Shown here in pieces: positions 1,450 through 13,598 of a DNA stretch of 63,402 nucleotides. Origin of the DNA: Candidatus Zixiibacteriota bacterium. Its GTDB lineage: Bacteria; Zixibacteria; MSB-5A5; GN15; PGXB01. The notes below the pieces were generated by a model. That model saw only the letters and a list, made by a program, of their open reading frames with translations, had not been told where the DNA came from and made no database searches. The DNA is taken from the NCBI GenBank assembly GCA_900498245.1, contig LS998015.1, positions 1,762,343 to 1,825,744 of the forward strand, in the 5' to 3' direction. Both the position numbers and the translations under genes were made by a program. Every line of letters begins with the position of its first letter. Positions within the stretch are counted from its first letter, which is position 1.

Positions 1450-3501
1450 ATGAATAACGGCAGATTACATCGCCTTCAAAAAAGTGAAGAGATACCGGCA
1501 AGCGGCGGCTATCGGCTGATTTCAAGCTACTCTCCAAGAGGGGATCAGCCACAGGCCATAGCGGAATTGGTCGATGGTCTGGAACGGGGTCAGAAATTTC
1601 AGACCCTTCTGGGCGTGACCGGTTCCGGCAAGACTTTTACGGTCGCCAATGTGATCGAGAGATTTAAACGGCCGACACTGGTCATTTCTCACAATAAGAC
1701 CCTGGCGGCTCAACTTTACGGGGAACTTAAGGCCTTTTTCCCCCACAATGCGGTCGAATTCTTCATAAGTTATTACGACTATTACCAGCCGGAAGCATAT
1801 CTGCCGACCACTGACACCTATATTGAAAAAGATACTTCGATGAATGATGACATCGACCGTCTCCGCCTGAGAGCGACCGCCTCTCTGCTGGAGCGCGAGG
1901 ATGTTATAATTGTGGCGTCGGTTTCCTGCATTTATGGATTGGGTTCGCCGCAAGATTACCGGGATCTGCTGCTATTTTTGGAAGCCGGTCAGCATTATGA
2001 TAGAGACGAAATTATACGCACTCTGATTGATATTCATTATAACCGCAACGATATCGATTTTTCCCGGGGCAATTTTCGGGTCCGAGGCGATACGATTGAA
2101 CTGATCCCGGCCTATCAGGAAACTGCGCTTAGAATTGAATTATTCGGGGATGATATTGACAGGATTAGCGAGATCAATCCTTTGACCGGGGAGATAATCG
2201 GGGAACGCTCCAAAGTGGCGATTTATCCCGCCAAACATTTTGTCACGACCGAGCCCAAGATGGAAAAAGCGGTGGCGGCCATCACGGAAGAACTGGATGA
2301 AAGATTGGTGCAATTGCGAAATGCGGGAAAACTTTTGGAGGCCCAGCGGCTGGAATCACGCACCAGATACGATCTGGAGATGATGAAGGAAATCGGCTAT
2401 TGCAGCGGGATCGAGAACTATTCCCGTCATTTGACAGGTAGACAACAGGGAGAGAGACCATCGACACTCCTCGATTTCTTTCCGAAAGACTTTCTGCTTA
2501 TTATTGATGAATCCCACCAGACGGTTCCTCAATTACGCGGGATGTATGCTGGTGACAGGTCCCGAAAAGAGGTCCTGGTGGAGCATGGATTCAGATTGCC
2601 CTCGGCGCTGGATAACCGGCCGCTTTTCTTTGACGAATTTGAGTCCTTGATAAATAAAGTAATTTTTGTTTCCGCGACTCCGGCCGAATATGAACTGGAG
2701 AGGTCGGGCGGGGTAATCGTGGAGCAAGTCATACGGCCGACAGGTTTGTGTGATCCCAAAATTACTATCAGGCCCCTGGCACATCAGGTGGATGATTTAA
2801 TGGAGGAGGTGCGGCGCCGGGCGGGAGCGGGCGAAAGAGTTTTGGTCACCACTCTCACCAAGCGCATGGCGGAGGATTTGACCGACTATTTGGCCAAATT
2901 GGGCATCAGGGTTCGCTACCTGCACAGCGAAATCGATGCCATTGATCGGACCGAAATCATCCGGGATTTGCGTTTGGCGCAATTTGATGTTCTGGTCGGA
3001 ATAAATTTATTGCGGGAAGGTTTGGATCTTCCGGAAGTCTCATTGGTCGCGATTCTCGACGCCGATAAAGAGGGTTTTTTGCGTTCGGAGCGATCCCTGA
3101 TTCAAACCGCGGGTCGTGCCGCCAGAAATAAGAATGGCGAAGTCATCTTTTATGCCGATAAAATCACCGATTCCATGCGCAAGGCGATTGATGAGACGGA
3201 GCGGCGCCGGCAAAAACAACTGGAGTACAATCGAGTCAATAATATTAATCCTGAAACCATATTTAAGACACGAGAAGAGATTCTTCAGGCAACCAGGTTT
3301 GCCGATTCCAAGACGGCCGAGCCGGAAGCTGTCGAAAAACCCGACTACTTCGCCGAAATGACCGCCGAGGGGAAAATCGCGTTTCTTCTGAAGGCGATGA
3401 AAAAGGCGGCCGACAATCTGGAGTTTGAAACGGCCGCGGCGATTCGTGACGAACTGACAAATCTGAAAGAGGGGCTGAAGAAGAAGCGGAGTCGAAAATG
3501 A
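1450..3501 (+). CDS. uvrB: UvrB, excinuclease ABC subunit B
   Basis: The 683-residue protein is a complete UvrB, the damage-verifying helicase-like subunit of nucleotide excision repair in the cytoplasm. Visible landmarks are the Walker A loop GVTGSGKT near residue 55, the beta-hairpin region with [12 protein letters not shown] near 110, the DESH box ([11 protein letters not shown]) near 353, helicase motif VI (QTAGRAARN) near 552 and a C-terminal UVR domain (about 635-675) that binds UvrC. Length matches E. coli UvrB within ten residues. The ATG follows AGGAACCT. It is transcribed divergently from rplU across a 257-base gap, and its stop overlaps the next gene as ATGA. No uvrA or uvrC is nearby. 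Confidence 0.97.
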
Positions 3502-4397
3502 AGATGAGTAGAAAATTGCTTATATGGCCGTCGGTAATTCTGGTTATTATGATCATATTCTGGGGTTGTAAAAAGAGGACATTTACCGTTGAGAGCACCT
3601 ATGCGGAAGAAATGCAGCGATTCATTGTCGATTCCGACGATGGCCGCGAACTTTATCGACAAGATATATTTTCCGATCGACCCTTCTATGCTTATTATGA
3701 TTCACTGCATTTGTATTTCTATTCCATTGATTCCTCTCACAGGCGTATAAGGATCAATATCGGCTCACACGTGACCGACGTTTATCCCTATGAATCCATT
3801 TATAATGCTTTAGGGACCGTTTGGGATGTCTATTATGGCCATTTGAATCGAATTGACGGGGCGGACACTGTTCCGGCCTATATATTAGTGGACACACTGA
3901 TTCGATATGCTTATTTCTTGAAGTTGTATGATGATTCCTATGACTATCATGGCTGGCGTTTTTGGGGATTTATCGGCGGCAAATATAATCCGGTGGCCAG
4001 TCAGGGAGGAAGGGTTTTTGGAACGGCCGGTAATGTTTCCTGGCCGGCAACACCTCCGGGAATCCCGCCGGTTCCGGGTGATAGCGGAGGATACTATATC
4101 AATGATGACTTCATTCCCAAGTTTTCCCTGGCCGATTCGCTTACCCTTTTAACCAATATCCCGGATATCATATTTGTCGAGAAGGGTGACTCCGGGGTCG
4201 CACCGATCAAGGCCGCGACGTACAGTACTCGCTTTAGGGCCGGCTGGCGATTGCCCTCGCAAACGACCGAATTATATCACCTGATATTTTTTGATATTCC
4301 GGGTCGGTTCAAGGTCGATACCCTTCAGGATAACAGCGTGGAATCGACTCTTATTAAAACCTATGACTATATAATTCCCTTTAAGGCCGATATTTGA
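3498..4397 (+). CDS. Predicted lipoprotein of unknown function
   Basis: The 299-residue product has a basic start, a long hydrophobic segment and a lipobox-like end (IIFWGC, Cys24), so it is probably a lipid-anchored envelope protein. The rest is rich in Tyr, Asp and aromatic residues, with a Gly/Pro-rich middle ([16 protein letters not shown] near residue 185). It has no motif I can assign. Start ATG overlaps the uvrB stop as ATGA, so it is co-translated with uvrB although a link to DNA repair is not evident. I do not recognise the family. The coding call rests on the intact frame, the signal sequence and the overlap geometry. Confidence 0.75.
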
Positions 4398-5000: not shown

Positions 5001-8000
5001 ATGGTTAGATTGAAACTGCTTGTGACGGGTGCGGTTTCGTTTTTATTTATATTATTTGCCGCTTCTTCAGTGTTTGGCGCGGGATCGGTGTTTCCAGCCG
5101 GTTCTGAGTCAAACCTTACCGGTGCCGAAAGTGGTATTGAACCTACCAGTCTTTGGCCCCCTCAGTTCGATTCCCTCGATACAAATGATAGTTTTTTTGT
5201 TTGCACTGGTTCGACGATTTATGACACGATTAAGGCCGTTTCCACGGCCTTGGTTTCAGGAAAGCTTTTGACTCTGACCAAAATATCCGGCCCGGGCGAT
5301 TTTTCATCGACACCTTCTCCTGATACAGTATATGGTTATTTCAGTTACCGGACAAACCGCTCCGAGAGTTTTCAAGTAACTTATAAAGTTGAGACCCAGG
5401 ATGGCTACACGGCCACGGCTACGAAAACCTATAACATATTTGTCAACGGTGCCCCCGTCATCACCACCGGCGACAGCTCATTTTATAGTTGTTGGGTGGG
5501 CGAAATATTCGACTATCAAATAAGAGCATCGGATCCTGAAAATGACCCCTTGACGTATATACTCCTATCCGGAGACGGGACGATTAATCCCCAAAGCGGA
5601 GTGTTGTCATTCCGGGCCGATACGTCCGGCCAATATTGTTTCCGGGTCTGGGTTTCGGATTCCTGCGCGGCCGATACCGCCAAAATTTGCCTTAATGTAA
5701 AACTGAATACCCCTCCCTTTGTTACCGGATTTGAAAAGAAGATATTATTGTGTGCAGTAGATACCGTCTGCTTTTCTGTTTCTGGCGGCGACCCGGACCC
5801 GGGTGATTCTATTGAGATTTTCCAATTAGACGGCCCGGGGATATTTGAAATGGTTGATAGCATCTCTGGTAGAACCTGCTTCCTGCCTGATAATGTCGAC
5901 TCCGCCACTTATACTTTCATCTATGGCGTAACCGACCGTTGTGCCCGAGGTGAGGGGGGAAAAGCGCTGGCGACGCCGCCGCTTTCGACCGACACGGTAA
6001 CCATTACGGTTATTATTACGCCGGGACCGCAGGTGACTTGCCCGCAGGACACATCGATTTTCCTCTGCGCTCCCGATACCATTTGTCTTCCAATCGAAGG
6101 ATTGCCGGAAAATTTGGAAGGGGTTACGATATTTCCCGGTGCTGTCTGGTATGATCAGATCAAGCATTCTCTCTGTTTTTATGCGGACAAAAATGAGGAC
6201 AAGCAGATTGGCGTGGTTGTCTCCAGCAACTGCGGGGTGGACAGCTGCCTTACAAATATATCCGTTCGCATTAATTCGGCCCCGATCGTTAAACTGGGTT
6301 CGGATACAACCGTGCTGGGTTGTACGCCGGCGCCGATATGTCTTCCGGTAATGATTTCCGATTCCGACCGCAACATTTCATCGGTTTCAACCAATCTGGG
6401 AGATTATTCGGACGGGCAAATTTGCTTTACGCCTCCAGATGCCGGCAAGTATACGTTAGTGGTTACGGCGACTGATTCCTGCGGTGCCGTCGGGCTTGAT
6501 AGTTTGATAATTACTTACAATCGTTCCGAGACGGTTTCACTGCAATGCCCTGAAGATACTTCGATATTTCTATGTGCCCCCGATACAATTTGCCTGCCCT
6601 TGGGCGGAGTTCCCGAGGGAGCGGCGGTCTCGGTGTCTCCGGCGTCCGCTTGGTATGACAAAGCCGCCGGAACGATTTGCTTCTATACGAACTGCTCCGT
6701 TGTGAAGAATATCAAGGCGGTTGTCGCCACGGAGTGCGGAAAAGACAGCTGCGGTTTTGCCGTCAACGTAACCATGAATACCCGCCCATTGGTGCTGCTC
6801 GGCCCGGATACGACGGTAAATCTCTGTGTTCCGACAGAAATATGCCTGCCGGCGGCAGTGAGCGATGTCGATGGCAATATCACAAATATAATGACCTCAA
6901 AAGGCGCCCGTTATGATTCCGCCACCGGACGTGTGTGCGTCACTCCCACTATAGAAGGAACAAACACGGTTCAGTTGTGGGCCGTGGATGCCTGCGGGGC
7001 GCATGGCGTGGCCAGTGCCAAGATTACGGTAAAATTCAATAAACCGCCGGTGGTCAAATCGGCCCCGGACATGGATGTCAAACAGTGCGGCCTTTCCGAA
7101 ATCTGCTTCCCGGTGAGTATTTCGGATGTGGAAAATGACATAACCAGCATTCAGGTCAGTCCCCTCGGCCGATATGACGCCGGTCGCGGTGTGATCTGTT
7201 TTACACCGCCCGGGGGAGGAACGTATAGCATAATTACCACTGCCATCGACAAGTGCGGCCTTGTGGGGCGGGACACGACGGTAGTGAGGGTTCATCAAAA
7301 TATGCCGCCGCAGGTTAAAGCGGCCGATACCTCGGTATTTCTATGCGAGCCCGAGACGATATGTGTCCCGGTACAAATCAGTGATACCGATACTAATATT
7401 CAAACCGTCAATGTCAGCGGCGGGGCCGTTTACTCCGACGGCTTCCTTTGCTTTGTCCCGGGTGGCACCGGCCAGTTTGCTTTTACCATAGCGGCAATCG
7501 ATTCCTGCGGAGCGGTGGGCGCCGATACCGCCCATATTAATGTTGTAATAAATTCCGCGCCGGTGCTTTCGAGCGCCGATGATTTCTCGATTATAAGGTG
7601 CGATACGAGCGCCGTTTGCTTTGATATAACGGTTGCGGATATTGACGCCAATTTAATGAGTATCGGGGCAAATTTCGGCTCATATGATTCCGAGAAGCAT
7701 CAAATCTGCTTTAGCCCGCACGGACCGGGAACATATAGCGTGATCATCACAGCCGTTGATTCCTGCTATGCCGCCTCTGTCGATACTACTTTCATTACCG
7801 TGGAGAAGGGTCCGGTGCCGGTAATCTCCTGCCCGGATACACTTTTGAATGTCGAAGGGTGTGTCGGAATCGATTCGCTTTGCCTGAATGTTCCTGTGGA
7901 AGGGGCCGATTCGGTGTTCGTTCCGGATGCGATCTGGCATAACGGGCAAATTTGTTTTGCGGCACCGAAAACGGCTCTTGAAAAAGACACGGCCTTTATG

Positions 8001-11000
8001 CTGATTGCCGCTAATGAATGCGGCCGGGATACGTGCATTGTCAACGCCCATATGAAGATCCAGGACAAACCGGTCATCGTTTCAGTCGACAGTGTGAAAG
8101 CCACGGCATGTGCCGGTGAAACGGTCTGCACCGATTTAGCAGTCTCCGGTGCGGATAGCGTGACGGTAAGTGGCGGCGCTACGTATATCGGAGGTAAACT
8201 CTGCGTTACCGCCCAATCTCCCGGACGCTTTGTGATAGGAGTGACTGCATATGGTACGTGCGGGGTTGTCACAAAGAATGTTATTTTTAAGATCAATATT
8301 GATTATGGTCCGATAATTTCCTGCCCGACTTCGCCGATTCCGGTGACTATCTGCGATCCGGGCAATATCTGTGTCGATTTGCCTATAAGCAATTATACCA
8401 ATGTCAGGGTTGACGGCGGCACCTGGTCGAACGGAAAACTCTGTTTCAACGCCGATAAAAGCGGCGATTATATATTACATGTCACGGCCGACGGCCGATG
8501 CAAGAGTTCGACGTGCGACGTCAAGGTCACGGTTACGATTCCGCCACGACCCGCGATTACTTGTCCTACGGCCGTAATAGATATACCCTTCTGCGCACCG
8601 ATGAACAGCTGTATCGATTTACCCATTGCCAATTATGATTCGGTGCACGTTGTCGGGGGGACCTGGGCGAACGGCAAATTGTGCTTTGATATAAATCAGG
8701 CCGGAGCGATTGCGATCAATGTCATGGCATTCAATCAATGCGGCGCCGATACCTGTACGGTAAATTTGAATGCCGTCCAGCTGCCCAAGCCGGAGATAAC
8801 CTGTCCGGAGTCGCCGATCAATCTGGCCCTCTGCCAGGTGGGACAGGTCTGTACCGATATTGCGATTGCCAATGCCGATAGCGTCGTAACCGATGGCGGC
8901 AGTTGGCTCGACGGCAAATTGTGTTTCACCCCGGAAGGCTCCGGAACGCATATCGTGAAAATCCGTTCCTATAATCAATGCGGTGTCGATTCCTGTCAGA
9001 TTACTTACAATATAAGCGTGGCCGAGCCGCTGGTGATGAACTGCCCTGTTGATACGACTATCAATCTCTGCGCCCCGAGCGAGATTTGTCGGCCGGTATC
9101 GGTTTCACCCGCCGGTACAGAAATTTTTGTATCGCCAATCGGAGAATATAGAGACGGCAATGTTTGCTTTGTTCCGGATACGGCCGGATCATATGAATTT
9201 ACAGTCAAAGGGATGACCGGATGTGCCGAGGACTCCTGCCAATTCAAAGTTCGCGTATTATTCAATGAAAAGCCGGTCATTGCGGCAAGGGATAGCTCAT
9301 ATTTTATTTGCCGTCCCGGCGATTCGCTGGAGTACCCAGTAAAAGTCAGTGATTACGAGGGCGATCTTATTACATTCCGACTTCTTACCGGATACGGTTC
9401 GATAAATGCTGAGGGTATTATTACCTTTGCGGGAGATACGACCGGAAATTACTGCTTTACTGTTGAGGCCCGGGATAAATGCGCCGCCGATACAGCACAG
9501 ATTTGCCTCAGTGTCACCAGCAATAAAGCGCCACAGGTGATTTCTGCACCCGATACGACTGTAAACGGCTGTTCACTCGGGACCGTGTGTATTTCAGTGG
9601 AAGTCAATGATCCTGATAATAATATTACTTCAGTTGTCTCCAATCTGGGATCTTATAGCGACGGACAGGTCTGCTTTACCCCTTCGGAAGCCGGCAATTA
9701 TTCAATCATAACGACCGCGACCGACGCCTGCGGGGCAAGTGATATCGATACCACAATCGTCAGCGTAACGACGCCTCAGCCCCTTACTCTGGAGTGTCCG
9801 CGAGATACCTCGATGTTCATTTGTAGTCCGGACACTCTTTGCTTCCCGATTGGCGGAATTCCGACCTCTGCCACGGTAACAGTTTCACCGCCTTCGGCGT
9901 GGTATGATAGGGCGGCGGGTTCGGTCTGCTTCTATACTAATTGCTCCGTCAAGAAGGACATTAAGATTGTAGTTGGGACCGATTGTGGTGCGGATAGTTG
10001 CCTCTTCAGCGTGAATGTCACCATGAACACCAGACCCCTGGTTTTGCTGGGCCCCGATACTACGATATTTATGTGCCAGTTGGGTGAAATTTGTATTCCG
10101 GCGGCGATAAGTGATGTTGATAATAATATAAGTTCCATCCTGCCGTCGCGCGGCGCCCGCTTTGACCAGGCCACGGGCCGTCTTTGTTTCACTCCTGCAG
10201 CGGAAGGAATTAGCACGGTTCAATTGCGGGCCATTGATTCCTGCGGTGGTTTCGGCCTGGCTTCGGCCAAAATAAATGTCATCCTTAACAAGCCTCCCAT
10301 TGTCAAGACTTCTTCGGATCTTGATTTGTTGCAGTGCACATTAAGTGAGGTTTGTTTCCCGGCAGAAATAAGCGACAGCAACAATAATATCACTTCAATT
10401 ACTGTTTCTCCGCTCGGGCATTATGATTCTCAGAAAAAGATGATTTGTTTCACGCCATCATCGGCAGGAACGTATTCAATCATAACGACGGCGGTGGATA
10501 CTTGCGGTTTGACGGCCAGTGATACTACAACGGTCAAAATCCTGCTTAATACCGCACCGGCCGTGGTCTCGGCCGCCGATAGCACCATAACTTTATGTAG
10601 TCTGGAGCCGGTCTGTTTTCCCGTCACGATCACTGACGCGGATAATAATGTTTCGCGGGTTGAAGTCAGTAATGGCGGTACATACAGCAACGGCCAGGTT
10701 TGTTTCACCCCTTCGGCGGCCGGTGATTACAGCATTATCATCATCGCCTATGATTCATGCGGGGCCTCCGCAACCGATACCACCAAGCGAAAAATAATTC
10801 TCAACAGCCGCCCCGTGGTGATCGGACCGGACGACTTTACGGTTATGCAGTGCTCCCTCAGCCAGATTTGTTTCAATGTGGCGGTCTCGGATATTGACGG
10901 CAATATAACTTCGGTTATAACCAGCCTGGGAACCTATAACGCTCAGAGCGGACAAGTCTGTTTCACGCCGACGGGATCGGGGTCGTATGGCGCTGTCATA

Positions 11001-13598
11001 ACGGCCACTGATAAATGCGGTCTTGCCGCGGTCGATACGGTAAATATCACCGTTAATGTGGGACAGCGGGCGGATATTGTCTGTCCTTCAGGACCGATTA
11101 ATATAAATCTATGTCAGCCCGACACTATCTGTCAGCCACTGACAATAACTCCGATCAATGCCTTGATTGCTCTTTCTTACGGGGCGTACAGCAACGGGAC
11201 TTTATGTTTCCGCGCGGATACGTCCGGTCATTATAATATTCGAGTGATAGCCGGGGCCGAATGCGGGGCCGATACCTGCAATATCCAGTTCAATGTTTTC
11301 ATAGATCAGGCGCCGGAAATTACCTGCCCAAGCCTGCCGACAACCGCTTCTCTGTGCCGGGCGGATTCCGTTAGGATTATACTGCCGATAACTCCAGCGA
11401 ATGCTACGGTAACAGTATTACCGAAAGGGCGCTACAGTTTCTCGACTCATATGGTATCTTTCCTGGCCGACACCGCCGGAACATATAATTTAACGGTTAT
11501 AGCGTCCACCACCTGCGGGGCCGATACCTGCCACTTGAAGGCAATCGTAACAATGGAGCAAGTTCCGCAGTTGACCTGTCCCGGAAGTATTGATACGACA
11601 ATCTGTCTGACGCAAATATCCGAAATCTGCTTCCCGGTGACACTGGTGGGCGCCAATGCCGCGGTAGTGGTCACTCCCAGCGGTCATTACAGCGGGGGAA
11701 TGGTATGTGTGCCGATAACCGGAGCGGGAACCTATCCGGTGAAGATAATTGCATCGACCCTGTGCGGATCCGATACCTGTATCACAAATTTGACGGTCCA
11801 CGGCAATAATGCTCCCGTTTTGACCGTCCACGCCGACACAACAGTCTTGGCTTGTGACGATGATTTGAAGGAAATCTGTCTGGATGGGATTTTTGCCATA
11901 GACGCCGAGCATAATTCGCTGTCAATTACAAAGACCTGTGGTCCGGGCGCATATAATGCGATTCGCTCCGACAGCGGGCAGATCTGCTTCACGCCGACAA
12001 GGACGGATACCACATATACATTCTGCTTTGAAGCTACTGACGGCTGTCAAACAGTTTCCAAGAATCTGGCGATAACAGTCAATCAGGCGCCGGATTGCAA
12101 TGTCTGCGTCGATCTGGCGATTCAAACCGATTCCTGTGTGGTCGTGGGCTCAACAGTGCCGGTAAGATTGAAAATCAAAACGCGGGACCAGATTGGCGGC
12201 TTTGATCTTCTTATTAGCTATGATGCCTCGGTCTTGTCAATTTTGAATGCCTCGCGCGGCACTGATATCAGCGGCTGGGAGTATTTCACTTACCGCTTGG
12301 GCACGGAATCCGGGTGCGGCTCAGGTTGTCCCACGGGTTTGGTGCGGGTGGTAGGCATTGCCGATATCAATAACGGTTCGGCTCATCCGCCGCAGGAGCA
12401 ATTACTGCCGGACGGCATTTTGGCCGTTTTGATGATGAAAGTGGCCAACGATCAGAATCTGGGCGGACAATTCCTTCCGATTGGATTTTATTGGAACGAT
12501 TGCGGTGATAACGCCTTCTCGGATCCCAGTGGTTCGGGCTTATATGTTGATGCCAGAATATATGGACCCTTTGGCGACACGCTTTGGGACGAATATAACG
12601 ACATAAAATACCCCGAAACGGGCCGGATCACCGGTCTTGGCGCTCCGGACACCTGCGTTACGGGCGATAAGAACATCCCTGTTCGATGTATAGATTTCCA
12701 CTTTGGCGGTATTTGTGTCAAGCATCCGGATTCAATCGATGCTCGCGGCGATGTGAATCTTAATGGTATCGCCTATGAGATTGGTGACGCCGTTGTCTAC
12801 ACCAACTACTTCTTATTTGGTTTGAAGGCCTTTACGGTCAATGTGGACGGTCAGATTGCGGCCTCGGATGTCAACGCTGACGGATTGACCTTAACGGTCG
12901 CTGATCTAGTATATCTCGTTCGGGTAATTACGGGTGATGCCGTAAAAGTGGAGAAGTTGACGCCAAATGAAGCCGCGGTCGAATTATTGAGCCGCATTGA
13001 TGGTCATTCCATGGCGGTTTCCGTGAAAAATGAACTACCCATCGGCGGCGGTTTCCTGCGTTTCCGTTTCGAGGGCATTATCCCCAGCGAGCCGGTTCTG
13101 GCCGGGAGCTGTGAGGGAATGGATTATAAGTGTGTCATTTCCGGAAATGAAATCAGGATCCTTCTGTACAGTTTTGATTTGGGACACAAGATCGCTAAAA
13201 ATGCCGGCGAGCTGTTCACGATTAATTTTGGAGGAACAGGTAAAATCGAGTTAGCGGAGGCTTCTTTCGCGGGATACTACGGGGAAACGCTTGCCTCCCG
13301 GTTCGGGTCGGCCCAACTGCCCAGCGAATTTGCCCTTTCCCAGAATTATCCGAATCCATTCAACCCCATTACCTCGATCGATCTGAGCCTTCCGACGGCC
13401 TGTCAGTGGCATTTGACCATCTATAATGTCAGCGGTCAGGTAGTGCGCCGTATGAGCGGTGACGCCGATGCCGGGCGGGTGACCGTTACTTGGGATGGTC
13501 GGAGTGATTCCGGGCAACAGGCGACATCCGGCATTTATCTGTACAAAGTCAATGCAGGAACCTTCTCTGCCACTAAGAAGATGATGCTTTTGAAATAA
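5001..13598 (+). CDS. Giant secreted modular protein: about 27 Cys-rich Ig-like repeats, cohesin-like, dockerin-like and C-terminal sorting domain
   Basis: The 2865-residue product begins with a clear signal peptide (hydrophobic core VSFLFILFAAS, then SVFGAG). Residues 149-2360 are a train of about 26 modules of 80-105 residues, preceded by one divergent module. A typical unit reads PxV...C..(E/D)ICFPV.ISD.D.NI, then GxYD...G.(V/I)CFTP, then AGTYSIITTA.D.CG, with about four cysteines each. A cohesin-like domain (about 2361-2520) follows, then two dockerin-like calcium loops (DVNLNG at 2584, DVNADG near 2624). The protein ends in an NYPNPFNP-type FlgD-like/type IX-sorting-like domain (about 2780-2865). 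I infer a cell-surface or extracellular adhesin or scaffold whose export goes beyond the Sec system; the ligand is unknown. It is monocistronic, with its own promoter and a terminator at 13627. GGAGG lies just before the ATG. Confidence 0.9.
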   Translation: MVRLKLLVTGAVSFLFILFAASSVFGAGSVFPAGSESNLTGAESGIEPTSLWPPQFDSLDTNDSFFVCTGSTIYDTIKAVSTALVSGKLLTLTKISGPGDFSSTPSPDTVYGYFSYRTNRSESFQVTYKVETQDGYTATATKTYNIFVNGAPVITTGDSSFYSCWVGEIFDYQIRASDPENDPLTYILLSGDGTINPQSGVLSFRADTSGQYCFRVWVSDSCAADTAKICLNVKLNTPPFVTGFEKKILLCAVDTVCFSVSGGDPDPGDSIEIFQLDGPGIFEMVDSISGRTCFLPDNVDSATYTFIYGVTDRCARGEGGKALATPPLSTDTVTITVIITPGPQVTCPQDTSIFLCAPDTICLPIEGLPENLEGVTIFPGAVWYDQIKHSLCFYADKNEDKQIGVVVSSNCGVDSCLTNISVRINSAPIVKLGSDTTVLGCTPAPICLPVMISDSDRNISSVSTNLGDYSDGQICFTPPDAGKYTLVVTATDSCGAVGLDSLIITYNRSETVSLQCPEDTSIFLCAPDTICLPLGGVPEGAAVSVSPASAWYDKAAGTICFYTNCSVVKNIKAVVATECGKDSCGFAVNVTMNTRPLVLLGPDTTVNLCVPTEICLPAAVSDVDGNITNIMTSKGARYDSATGRVCVTPTIEGTNTVQLWAVDACGAHGVASAKITVKFNKPPVVKSAPDMDVKQCGLSEICFPVSISDVENDITSIQVSPLGRYDAGRGVICFTPPGGGTYSIITTAIDKCGLVGRDTTVVRVHQNMPPQVKAADTSVFLCEPETICVPVQISDTDTNIQTVNVSGGAVYSDGFLCFVPGGTGQFAFTIAAIDSCGAVGADTAHINVVINSAPVLSSADDFSIIRCDTSAVCFDITVADIDANLMSIGANFGSYDSEKHQICFSPHGPGTYSVIITAVDSCYAASVDTTFITVEKGPVPVISCPDTLLNVEGCVGIDSLCLNVPVEGADSVFVPDAIWHNGQICFAAPKTALEKDTAFMLIAANECGRDTCIVNAHMKIQDKPVIVSVDSVKATACAGETVCTDLAVSGADSVTVSGGATYIGGKLCVTAQSPGRFVIGVTAYGTCGVVTKNVIFKINIDYGPIISCPTSPIPVTICDPGNICVDLPISNYTNVRVDGGTWSNGKLCFNADKSGDYILHVTADGRCKSSTCDVKVTVTIPPRPAITCPTAVIDIPFCAPMNSCIDLPIANYDSVHVVGGTWANGKLCFDINQAGAIAINVMAFNQCGADTCTVNLNAVQLPKPEITCPESPINLALCQVGQVCTDIAIANADSVVTDGGSWLDGKLCFTPEGSGTHIVKIRSYNQCGVDSCQITYNISVAEPLVMNCPVDTTINLCAPSEICRPVSVSPAGTEIFVSPIGEYRDGNVCFVPDTAGSYEFTVKGMTGCAEDSCQFKVRVLFNEKPVIAARDSSYFICRPGDSLEYPVKVSDYEGDLITFRLLTGYGSINAEGIITFAGDTTGNYCFTVEARDKCAADTAQICLSVTSNKAPQVISAPDTTVNGCSLGTVCISVEVNDPDNNITSVVSNLGSYSDGQVCFTPSEAGNYSIITTATDACGASDIDTTIVSVTTPQPLTLECPRDTSMFICSPDTLCFPIGGIPTSATVTVSPPSAWYDRAAGSVCFYTNCSVKKDIKIVVGTDCGADSCLFSVNVTMNTRPLVLLGPDTTIFMCQLGEICIPAAISDVDNNISSILPSRGARFDQATGRLCFTPAAEGISTVQLRAIDSCGGFGLASAKINVILNKPPIVKTSSDLDLLQCTLSEVCFPAEISDSNNNITSITVSPLGHYDSQKKMICFTPSSAGTYSIITTAVDTCGLTASDTTTVKILLNTAPAVVSAADSTITLCSLEPVCFPVTITDADNNVSRVEVSNGGTYSNGQVCFTPSAAGDYSIIIIAYDSCGASATDTTKRKIILNSRPVVIGPDDFTVMQCSLSQICFNVAVSDIDGNITSVITSLGTYNAQSGQVCFTPTGSGSYGAVITATDKCGLAAVDTVNITVNVGQRADIVCPSGPININLCQPDTICQPLTITPINALIALSYGAYSNGTLCFRADTSGHYNIRVIAGAECGADTCNIQFNVFIDQAPEITCPSLPTTASLCRADSVRIILPITPANATVTVLPKGRYSFSTHMVSFLADTAGTYNLTVIASTTCGADTCHLKAIVTMEQVPQLTCPGSIDTTICLTQISEICFPVTLVGANAAVVVTPSGHYSGGMVCVPITGAGTYPVKIIASTLCGSDTCITNLTVHGNNAPVLTVHADTTVLACDDDLKEICLDGIFAIDAEHNSLSITKTCGPGAYNAIRSDSGQICFTPTRTDTTYTFCFEATDGCQTVSKNLAITVNQAPDCNVCVDLAIQTDSCVVVGSTVPVRLKIKTRDQIGGFDLLISYDASVLSILNASRGTDISGWEYFTYRLGTESGCGSGCPTGLVRVVGIADINNGSAHPPQEQLLPDGILAVLMMKVANDQNLGGQFLPIGFYWNDCGDNAFSDPSGSGLYVDARIYGPFGDTLWDEYNDIKYPETGRITGLGAPDTCVTGDKNIPVRCIDFHFGGICVKHPDSIDARGDVNLNGIAYEIGDAVVYTNYFLFGLKAFTVNVDGQIAASDVNADGLTLTVADLVYLVRVITGDAVKVEKLTPNEAAVELLSRIDGHSMAVSVKNELPIGGGFLRFRFEGIIPSEPVLAGSCEGMDYKCVISGNEIRILLYSFDLGHKIAKNAGELFTINFGGTGKIELAEASFAGYYGETLASRFGSAQLPSEFALSQNYPNPFNPITSIDLSLPTACQWHLTIYNVSGQVVRRMSGDADAGRVTVTWDGRSDSGQQATSGIYLYKVNAGTFSATKKMMLLK
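6273..7808 (+). repeat. Six-module block, copy A of an internal duplication
   Basis: Residues 425-936 (512 residues) match residues 1508-2020 module for module in the same order. Examples are AWYDKAAGTICFYTNCSV against AWYDRAAGSVCFYTNCSV and VTMNTRPLVLLGPDTT, which is identical in both. The order of module sub-types is preserved across all six units. Confidence 0.85.
9522..11060 (+). repeat. Six-module block, copy B of an internal duplication
   Basis: Residues 1508-2020 (513 residues) are the partner of residues 425-936. The module immediately before this block (9264-9521, SSYFICRPGD...CAADTAQICLSV) also resembles the one at 5445-5705 (SSFYSCWVGE...CAADTAKICLNV). Copy A has two extra modules between that element and the block. 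Confidence 0.85.

What the first reader, a model, noticed from the sequence alone, without database searches (positions are those of the whole stretch)
5001..13598. A 2865-residue surface protein joining about 27 Cys-rich Ig-like modules to cohesin-like, dockerin-like and sorting domains
The sequence shows a signal peptide, a long train of modules each with about four cysteines at fixed places, a cohesin-like domain, two DxNxNG-type calcium loops and an NYPNPFNP C-terminal domain. Having cohesin-like and dockerin-like parts in the same chain, capped by a type IX-like sorting domain, suggests self-assembly or docking at the cell surface. More than one hundred regularly spaced cysteines imply a disulfide-stapled rod exported through an oxidising periplasm. 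I infer the assembly role; no ligand is apparent.
Basis: partly seen in the sequence, partly recalled or inferred. Interest (0 to 1): 0.62.

Follow-up and report, generated by a model that had tools for sequence, protein, structure and literature searches.

The report
Disulfide-stapled Ig rod with cohesin–dockerin cap
This is a real, very long surface protein of Zixibacteria: a rod of about 27 disulfide-locked immunoglobulin-like beads whose C-terminal end carries a cohesin, a dockerin and the tag that sends proteins out through the type IX secretion system; the gene family is found almost throughout the phylum, but what the rod binds is unknown.

Summary
Confirmed. ORF 5001-13598 (2865 aa, 141 Cys) is a Zixibacteria protein with a signal peptide, 26 profile-detectable Ig/PKD-like modules plus one divergent module, then a composite cap (about 500 aa): cohesin, dockerin, beta-module, type IX sorting domain. 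The predicted cohesin matches solved cohesins (Z 15.8, rmsd 2.0 A, 140 residues); the tail matches the PorU CTD (Z 11.1). The dockerin is a divergent relative of type I dockerins with two 13-residue loops. The genome encodes SprA and PorU above curated cut-offs and several PorV-family proteins. Cysteine co-occurrence over 881 modules indicates disulfides within modules (C1-C6 phi 0.97, C3-C4 phi 0.98), not between them. The gene keeps its place beside rlmH-yjbQ-ftsY across the order while module number varies widely. The cap occurs in 120 of 132 genomes of the phylum. 'Self-assembly or docking' is not shown: a cis cohesin-dockerin clasp and trans docking both remain open. In passing: about 60 secreted proteins of this genome end in a canonical dockerin and lack the CTD, while 12 of 13 cohesin-hit ORFs carry the CTD, a cellulosome-like division of labour already proposed for one Cloacimonadota genus. 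New variant of a known kind.

The parts
5001..13598 (+). whole gene, 2865 aa
   Evidence: orthologues beside rlmH-yjbQ-ftsY
5001..5081 (+). signal peptide (approx. residues 1-27)
   Evidence: by eye: MVRLKLLVTGAVSFLFILFAASSVFGAGS; no dedicated predictor run
5082..5450 (+). divergent N-terminal beta-rich, Cys-poor module (residues 28-150)
   Evidence: not found by the module profile; assignment by eye
5451..12086 (+). 26 Ig/PKD-like Cys modules M01-M26 (residues 151-2362)
   Evidence: fold of M21-M25
6273..7808 (+). block M04-M09, first copy of a multi-module segmental duplication
   Evidence: M05/M18 65%, M06/M19 64%, M07/M20 61% identical and each other's best partners
9522..11063 (+). block M17-M22, second copy of that duplication
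12105..12728 (+). cohesin domain with ~55-residue insertion (residues 2369-2576)
   Evidence: predicted structure vs 4uyq_A Z 15.8, rmsd 2.0, 140 aligned; nearly all of the 50 rows are cohesins; Foldseek TMt 0.74 to 5nrk_A
12732..12944 (+). dockerin-like domain with two 13-residue DxNxNG loops (residues 2578-2648)
   Evidence: profile hit to dockerin 3ul4_B E 2e-4; homology to the genome's terminal dockerins, hhalign E 5.6e-6, prob 86%; most conserved part of the cap
12945..13310 (+). beta-sandwich module between dockerin and CTD (residues 2649-2770), possibly a second, degenerate cohesin
   Evidence: predicted strands; weak links only
13329..13595 (+). type IX (type A) sorting domain, NYPNPFNP...KKMMLLK (residues 2777-2865)
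   Evidence: TIGR04183 45.1 bits; structure vs PorU CTD 6za2_A Z 11.1, rmsd 2.3, 90 aligned

Best explanation
It is a type IX-exported, C-terminally anchored surface rod. Shown or strongly indicated: about 27 Ig-type beads in a row, each locked by two or three internal disulfides, followed by a conserved cap of cohesin, dockerin, beta-module and sorting domain. Inferred: the chain enters the periplasm by Sec, folds and oxidises there, is passed by SprA/PorV, has its CTD removed by PorU and is fixed to the outer membrane by its cap, so that the rod (about 4 nm per bead, roughly 100 nm) stands out from the cell as an adhesive or spacer fibre whose reach is tuned by gain and loss of modules. Most likely, but not shown, the cohesin and the adjacent dockerin of the cap pack on each other in cis as a calcium-stabilised membrane-proximal clamp, rather than serving as an open docking site.
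For: Architecture and fold. Export machinery in the same genome: SprA 606.7 bits (cut-off 200), PorU 690.9 (cut-off 420), nine PorV-family matches over the cut-off. Intramodular disulfides. Orthologues next to rlmH-yjbQ-ftsY across the order, with 5-37 modules in genes not cut at their 5' end (the 5-module one, L097, may be a broken gene) and at least 38-40 modules in genes cut by the end of the locus. Cap at the very C-terminus of nearly every cap-bearing protein found, attached to rods or to other N-terminal parts, and found in 120/132 genomes of the phylum. For cis packing: cohesin and dockerin are directly adjacent, occur together in all aligned caps, the dockerin is the most conserved part of the cap (mean majority frequency 0.78, against 0.63 for the CTD and 0.58 for the cohesin strands), and caps persist (5-10 per genome) in family f4, whose genomes have only 3-22 canonical dockerins.
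Against: No inter-domain confidence (PAE) or coordinates were available, so cis packing is untested; pTM of the cap model is only 0.52. The caps were found with queries that span both domains, so their constant pairing is partly by selection. Cap copy number correlates with dockerin number across 20 good genomes (Spearman 0.68), as a trans partner would predict, though family membership confounds this. No ligand or adhesive domain was identified. Oxidising machinery is only weakly supported.
Confidence: 0.6

Rival explanations
1. Docking platform: the cap cohesin, anchored by the CTD, binds in trans the canonical dockerins that end about 60 other secreted proteins of the genome (peptidases, FG-GAP and beta-helix proteins), making a cellulosome-like surface display system of which this rod is one member.
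For: 72 PF00404 matches in the genome at E<=0.001, 62 of 72 within 25 residues of the stop codon, most with signal peptides and only one with a CTD; 13 of 14 cohesin matches lie on CTD-bearing ORFs; a 458-aa cohesin+dockerin ORF lies directly behind a 1511-aa cohesin+CTD ORF (L161); precedent proposed for Ca. Stygibacter (PMC8542988).
Against: Family f4 keeps caps with very few canonical dockerins. The cap cohesin has its own dockerin beside it. No binding-face analysis was possible; about ten caps to about 60 dockerins is not tested for specificity.
Confidence: 0.25
2. Self-assembly: the cohesin of one rod binds the dockerin of another, linking rods into fibres or a surface lattice.
For: Both partners are present in one chain and highly conserved; eight ORFs with such a unit in this genome.
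Against: Both lie at the membrane-proximal end, side by side, which favours cis contact and gives no head-to-tail geometry. No experimental or computed evidence for oligomers.
Confidence: 0.12
3. The cohesin and dockerin folds are purely structural spacers between rod and CTD that no longer bind anything.
For: Sequence divergence from cellulosomal partners (13-residue loops; sub-threshold Pfam cohesin); non-cellulosomal cohesins with the same fold are known (2xdh).
Against: The dockerin is the most conserved domain in the cap, including both calcium loops, which a passive spacer would not need.
Confidence: 0.2

Closest known systems
Cellulosomal cohesins, e.g. ScaC/ScaB cohesins (4uyq, 5nrk) and the anchoring scaffoldins OlpA/OlpC of Clostridium thermocellum (3ul4, 4dh2)
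   Same: Cohesin fold at Z about 15, rmsd about 2 A; as in OlpA/OlpC (from memory) a cohesin is joined to a surface-anchoring part
   Different: Anchor is a type IX CTD, not SLH or sortase; about 55-residue insertion; own dockerin directly behind; 27-module Ig rod; only about 20% identity
Type I dockerins (3ul4_B, 4fl4_A; PF00404)
   Same: Duplicated DxNxDG/NG loop-helix plan; profile E 2e-4 to 3ul4_B
   Different: Both loops 13 residues rather than 12, internal position, strongly conserved TNYF/LVYLIRV helices
Type IX cargo CTD (TIGR04183, PorU CTD in 6za2)
   Same: NYPNPFNP motif, fold Z 11.1 to PorU CTD, last residues KKMMLLK
   Different: No difference seen
GhpA grappling-hook protein of Aureispira (9fly, 9flv, 9flw)
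   Same: Giant bacterial protein built from strings of Ig-like domains; structural matches
   Different: Shared Ig topology only; no sequence link tested; the hook's mechanism was not tested here
Proposed cellulosome-like complex of Ca. Stygibacter, Cloacimonadota (PMC8542988)
   Same: C-terminal dockerins on secreted enzymes and a large cohesin protein with a CTD in an FCB-group phylum
   Different: There, tandem cohesins with CBMs in the scaffoldin; here one cohesin at the foot of an Ig rod, plus an internal dockerin

Membership tests
Type IX secretion type A cargo | C-terminal sorting domain above curated cut-off | tested here: met
   TIGR04183 45.1 bits vs 23, PF18962 28.7 vs 27; fold Z 11.1 to PorU CTD
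Type IX secretion type A cargo | SprA, PorU and PorV in the same genome | tested here: met
   SprA 606.7/200, PorU 690.9/420, PorV-family nine matches over 90 bits; the PorV equivalog model itself gave 179.9 vs 250 on the one protein scanned; PorK/L/M/N not tested
Type IX secretion type A cargo | N-terminal Sec signal peptide | tested here: inconclusive
   clear by eye; no predictor available
Cohesin | Cohesin nine-strand jelly-roll fold | tested here: met
   Z 15.8, rmsd 2.0, 140 aligned, on a predicted model
Cohesin | PF00963 above gathering score | tested here: not met
   19.5-22.7 bits vs 24.1; 37 of 79 relatives match at E<=1
Cohesin | Binds a dockerin | not testable with these tools
   needs a binding assay or complex prediction with PAE
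Dockerin type I | Two duplicated 12-residue calcium loops, each with F-helix | tested here: not met
   two loops present but 13 residues each; PF00404 no hit on the window protein at E<=1
Dockerin type I | Homology to dockerins | tested here: met
   profile to 3ul4_B E 2e-4; hhalign to own terminal dockerins E 5.6e-6
Cellulosome scaffoldin | Multiple cohesins or CBM binding dockerin enzymes | tested here: not met
   one cohesin by fold, no CBM by Pfam; a second degenerate cohesin in the beta-module is not excluded
Ig/PKD-like repeat proteins (Big_9, PKD) | Pfam Ig-type domain above cut-off | tested here: met
   PF17963 49.1 bits vs 23.6; fold

The most novel reading that the evidence does not exclude
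Zixibacteria use two C-terminal tags: type IX CTDs place cohesin-bearing proteins, including this rod, on the cell surface, and some 60 Sec-exported proteins with a terminal dockerin are carried or held there by those cohesins: a widespread cellulosome-like display (or T9SS piggy-back) system in bacteria not known as cellulose degraders.
Probability: 0.3. Interest if true: 0.8.

Novelty: new variant of a known kind. Interest (0 to 1): 0.5.

Why it matters
Almost every genome of an uncultured phylum carries this cap, and a length-variable giant rod sits at one conserved locus across the order, so it is probably central to how these cells meet their surroundings. It joins cellulosome parts to the type IX system in one chain and gives a testable rule (intramodular disulfides) and a testable partner set (terminal dockerins) for proteins with no assigned function.

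Tried and rejected
PDB by single sequence found nothing useful beyond FlgD-like and antibody noise. PHROGs and viral contigs: no relatives, so no sign of a phage origin. Inter-module disulfides: rejected on co-occurrence. A simple 'chance low-complexity repeat' reading: rejected by fold, synteny and conservation. Second cohesin in the beta-module: suggested by a weak profile hit to 2xdh (E 0.62), a dyad alignment with high rmsd (3l8q) and hhalign to another pre-CTD cohesin-like domain (prob 50%), but a profile of the module alone found no cohesin: left open. VIA-align showed no dockerin rows because cohesins filled the list: not evidence of absence. Paper searches for Zixibacteria with dockerin, cohesin, type IX secretion, sorting domain or giant proteins found nothing relevant; searches for 13-residue dockerin loops and for the grappling hook with type IX secretion found nothing.

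Full report
What is there. The ORF at 5001-13598 is intact and codes for 2865 residues with 141 cysteines, eight times the cysteine fraction of its neighbours. A profile made from ten of its modules finds 26 modules between residues 151 and 2355; a further divergent module precedes them. Aligning the modules shows 4-Cys and 6-Cys types and a segmental duplication: M05/M18, M06/M19 and M07/M20 are 61-65% identical and mutual best partners, within a run M04-M09 that lines up with M17-M22. The rod grew partly by copying blocks of modules.

Fold of the rod. Five modules (M21-M25) predicted with 58 related stretches gave mean pLDDT 96.1, all beta. The best structural matches are strings of Ig and cadherin domains (titin, Robo, protocadherin) and the bacterial Ig string GhpA. 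This shows an Ig-type fold, not a function.

Disulfides. In 999 modules from this protein and its relatives, six columns hold cysteine. Over the 881 modules with all six columns covered, the outer pair C1/C6 (347 with both, 522 with neither, 12 mixed; phi 0.97) and the inner pair C3/C4 (694, 182, 5; phi 0.98) come and go together; C2 and C5 are each present in 97-98%. C6 of one module against C1 of the next has phi 0.16. The plain reading is three disulfides within each 6-Cys module and two within each 4-Cys module. C2-C5 follows by elimination only.

The cap. Residues 2366-2865 were modelled with the preceding module and 78 relatives (mean pLDDT 85.4, pTM 0.52). Model residues 104-310 are a cohesin: Z 15.8, rmsd 2.0 over 140 residues to 4uyq, and nearly all of the 50 rows listed are cohesins. 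The tail matches the PorU CTD at Z 11.1. The dockerin part has loops of 13 residues, each with one residue more than the genome's canonical dockerins; its profile finds type I dockerin 3ul4_B at E 2e-4. It is the most conserved part of the cap. The beta-module behind it is unassigned; a second degenerate cohesin is possible but unproved.

Export. The same 3.51-Mb genome encodes SprA and PorU well above curated cut-offs and many PorV-family proteins, and about 50 CTD matches. One DsbA-family protein was found, no VKOR; DsbB was not tested.

Relatives. 56 of 60 genomes searched among relatives have module-train proteins. Named hits are almost all Candidatus Zixiibacteriota; a few records carry other names (Ignavibacterium, Calditrichaeota). 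At least 35 relatives lie 57-251 bases before a convergent rlmH, with yjbQ and ftsY beyond it as in the window in most of them: a vertically kept locus. Genes not cut at their 5' end have 5-37 modules (941-3678 aa); the shortest, L097, may be a broken gene. The cap profile finds 120 of 132 genomes of the phylum, often with 5-13 copies; some copies sit on rods, others on about 400-residue N-terminal parts.

A wider pattern. The genome has 72 canonical type I dockerins at E<=0.001; in 62 the dockerin is within 25 residues of the stop codon, with the motif GDxNxxGxVNILDVSYLINYLYKxGPAP. These ORFs mostly carry signal peptides (by a simple hydrophobicity rule) and only one has a CTD; six of 62 scanned match subtilases, others M28, M14, M1, C10 and M20 peptidases, FG-GAP and beta-helix folds. 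Of 14 cohesin matches, 13 lie on CTD-bearing ORFs and the last on a dockerin-ended ORF directly behind a cohesin-CTD gene. This is the division expected of anchors and passengers. It has been proposed for Ca. Stygibacter (PMC8542988); no paper for Zixibacteria was found in the library. It is a lead, not a result: several of those cohesin matches are weak.

Mechanism. I favour a type IX-exported, surface-fixed Ig rod whose cap cohesin and dockerin clamp each other in cis. Against an open docking role: family f4 keeps its caps (5-10) with only 3-22 dockerins. For it: cap and dockerin counts correlate over 20 good genomes (rho 0.68), confounded by family. Only a complex prediction with PAE, or binding experiments, can decide. 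Steps shown: fold (predicted), homology, genome content, synteny. Steps inferred: surface location, length (about 4 nm per Ig bead, general knowledge), cleavage by PorU, adhesion, cis clamp.

Noticed in passing
own genome, 72 places listed (loci L142-L198, L018): About 60 signal-peptide proteins end in a canonical type I dockerin (GDxNxxGxVNILDVSYLINYLYKxGPAP) about 10 residues before the stop and lack a CTD; most genomes of families f1-f3 have 38-149 dockerins (7 and 31 in two incomplete f1 genomes), five f4 genomes only 3-22.
   Followed up: partly
L161:1328-7296 (G000:C1:1213327-1219295): A 1508-aa protein with two cohesin matches and a CTD is followed by a 454-aa protein with a cohesin match and a terminal dockerin: anchor and adaptor side by side.
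   Followed up: partly
L201:759-1574 and L200:1112-2008: Small proteins (272 and 299 aa ORFs) made of signal peptide, cohesin-like domain (sub-threshold Pfam) and CTD, the plan of a single-cohesin anchoring scaffoldin.
   Followed up: partly
L016:4803-14431 (G000:C1:2900802-2910430): Second Ig-module rod with the same cap and a VWA-like N-terminal part (TIGR03436 78.9 bits, just under its cut-off); the sequence between its two ORFs contains a run of N.
   Followed up: partly
L021:4375-7098 (-): 907-aa PorV-family protein next to PorU whose profile match is split by roughly 570 residues (matches at residues 18-78 and 647-906).
   Followed up: no
window 12945-13310: The beta-module between dockerin and CTD may be a second, degenerate cohesin; a similar pre-CTD domain in L018 (G000:C1:1178-1453) passes the Pfam cohesin cut-off only together with its neighbours.
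   Followed up: partly
window 6273-7808 and 9522-11063: Multi-module block duplication inside the rod (M04-M09 versus M17-M22), preceded by the mutually related M01 and M16 (48% identical).
   Followed up: yes
L097:2006-11497: Relative apparently split in two ORFs (24 modules, then 5 modules plus cap): a broken gene or an assembly error.
   Followed up: no
window 3498-4397: Lipoprotein-like 299-aa ORF between uvrB and the rod gene, also found near the rod gene in several relatives; function unknown.
   Followed up: no
own genome, G000: No VKOR and only one weak DsbA-family match despite a 141-cysteine exported protein; source of oxidising power unresolved (DsbB not tested).
   Followed up: partly
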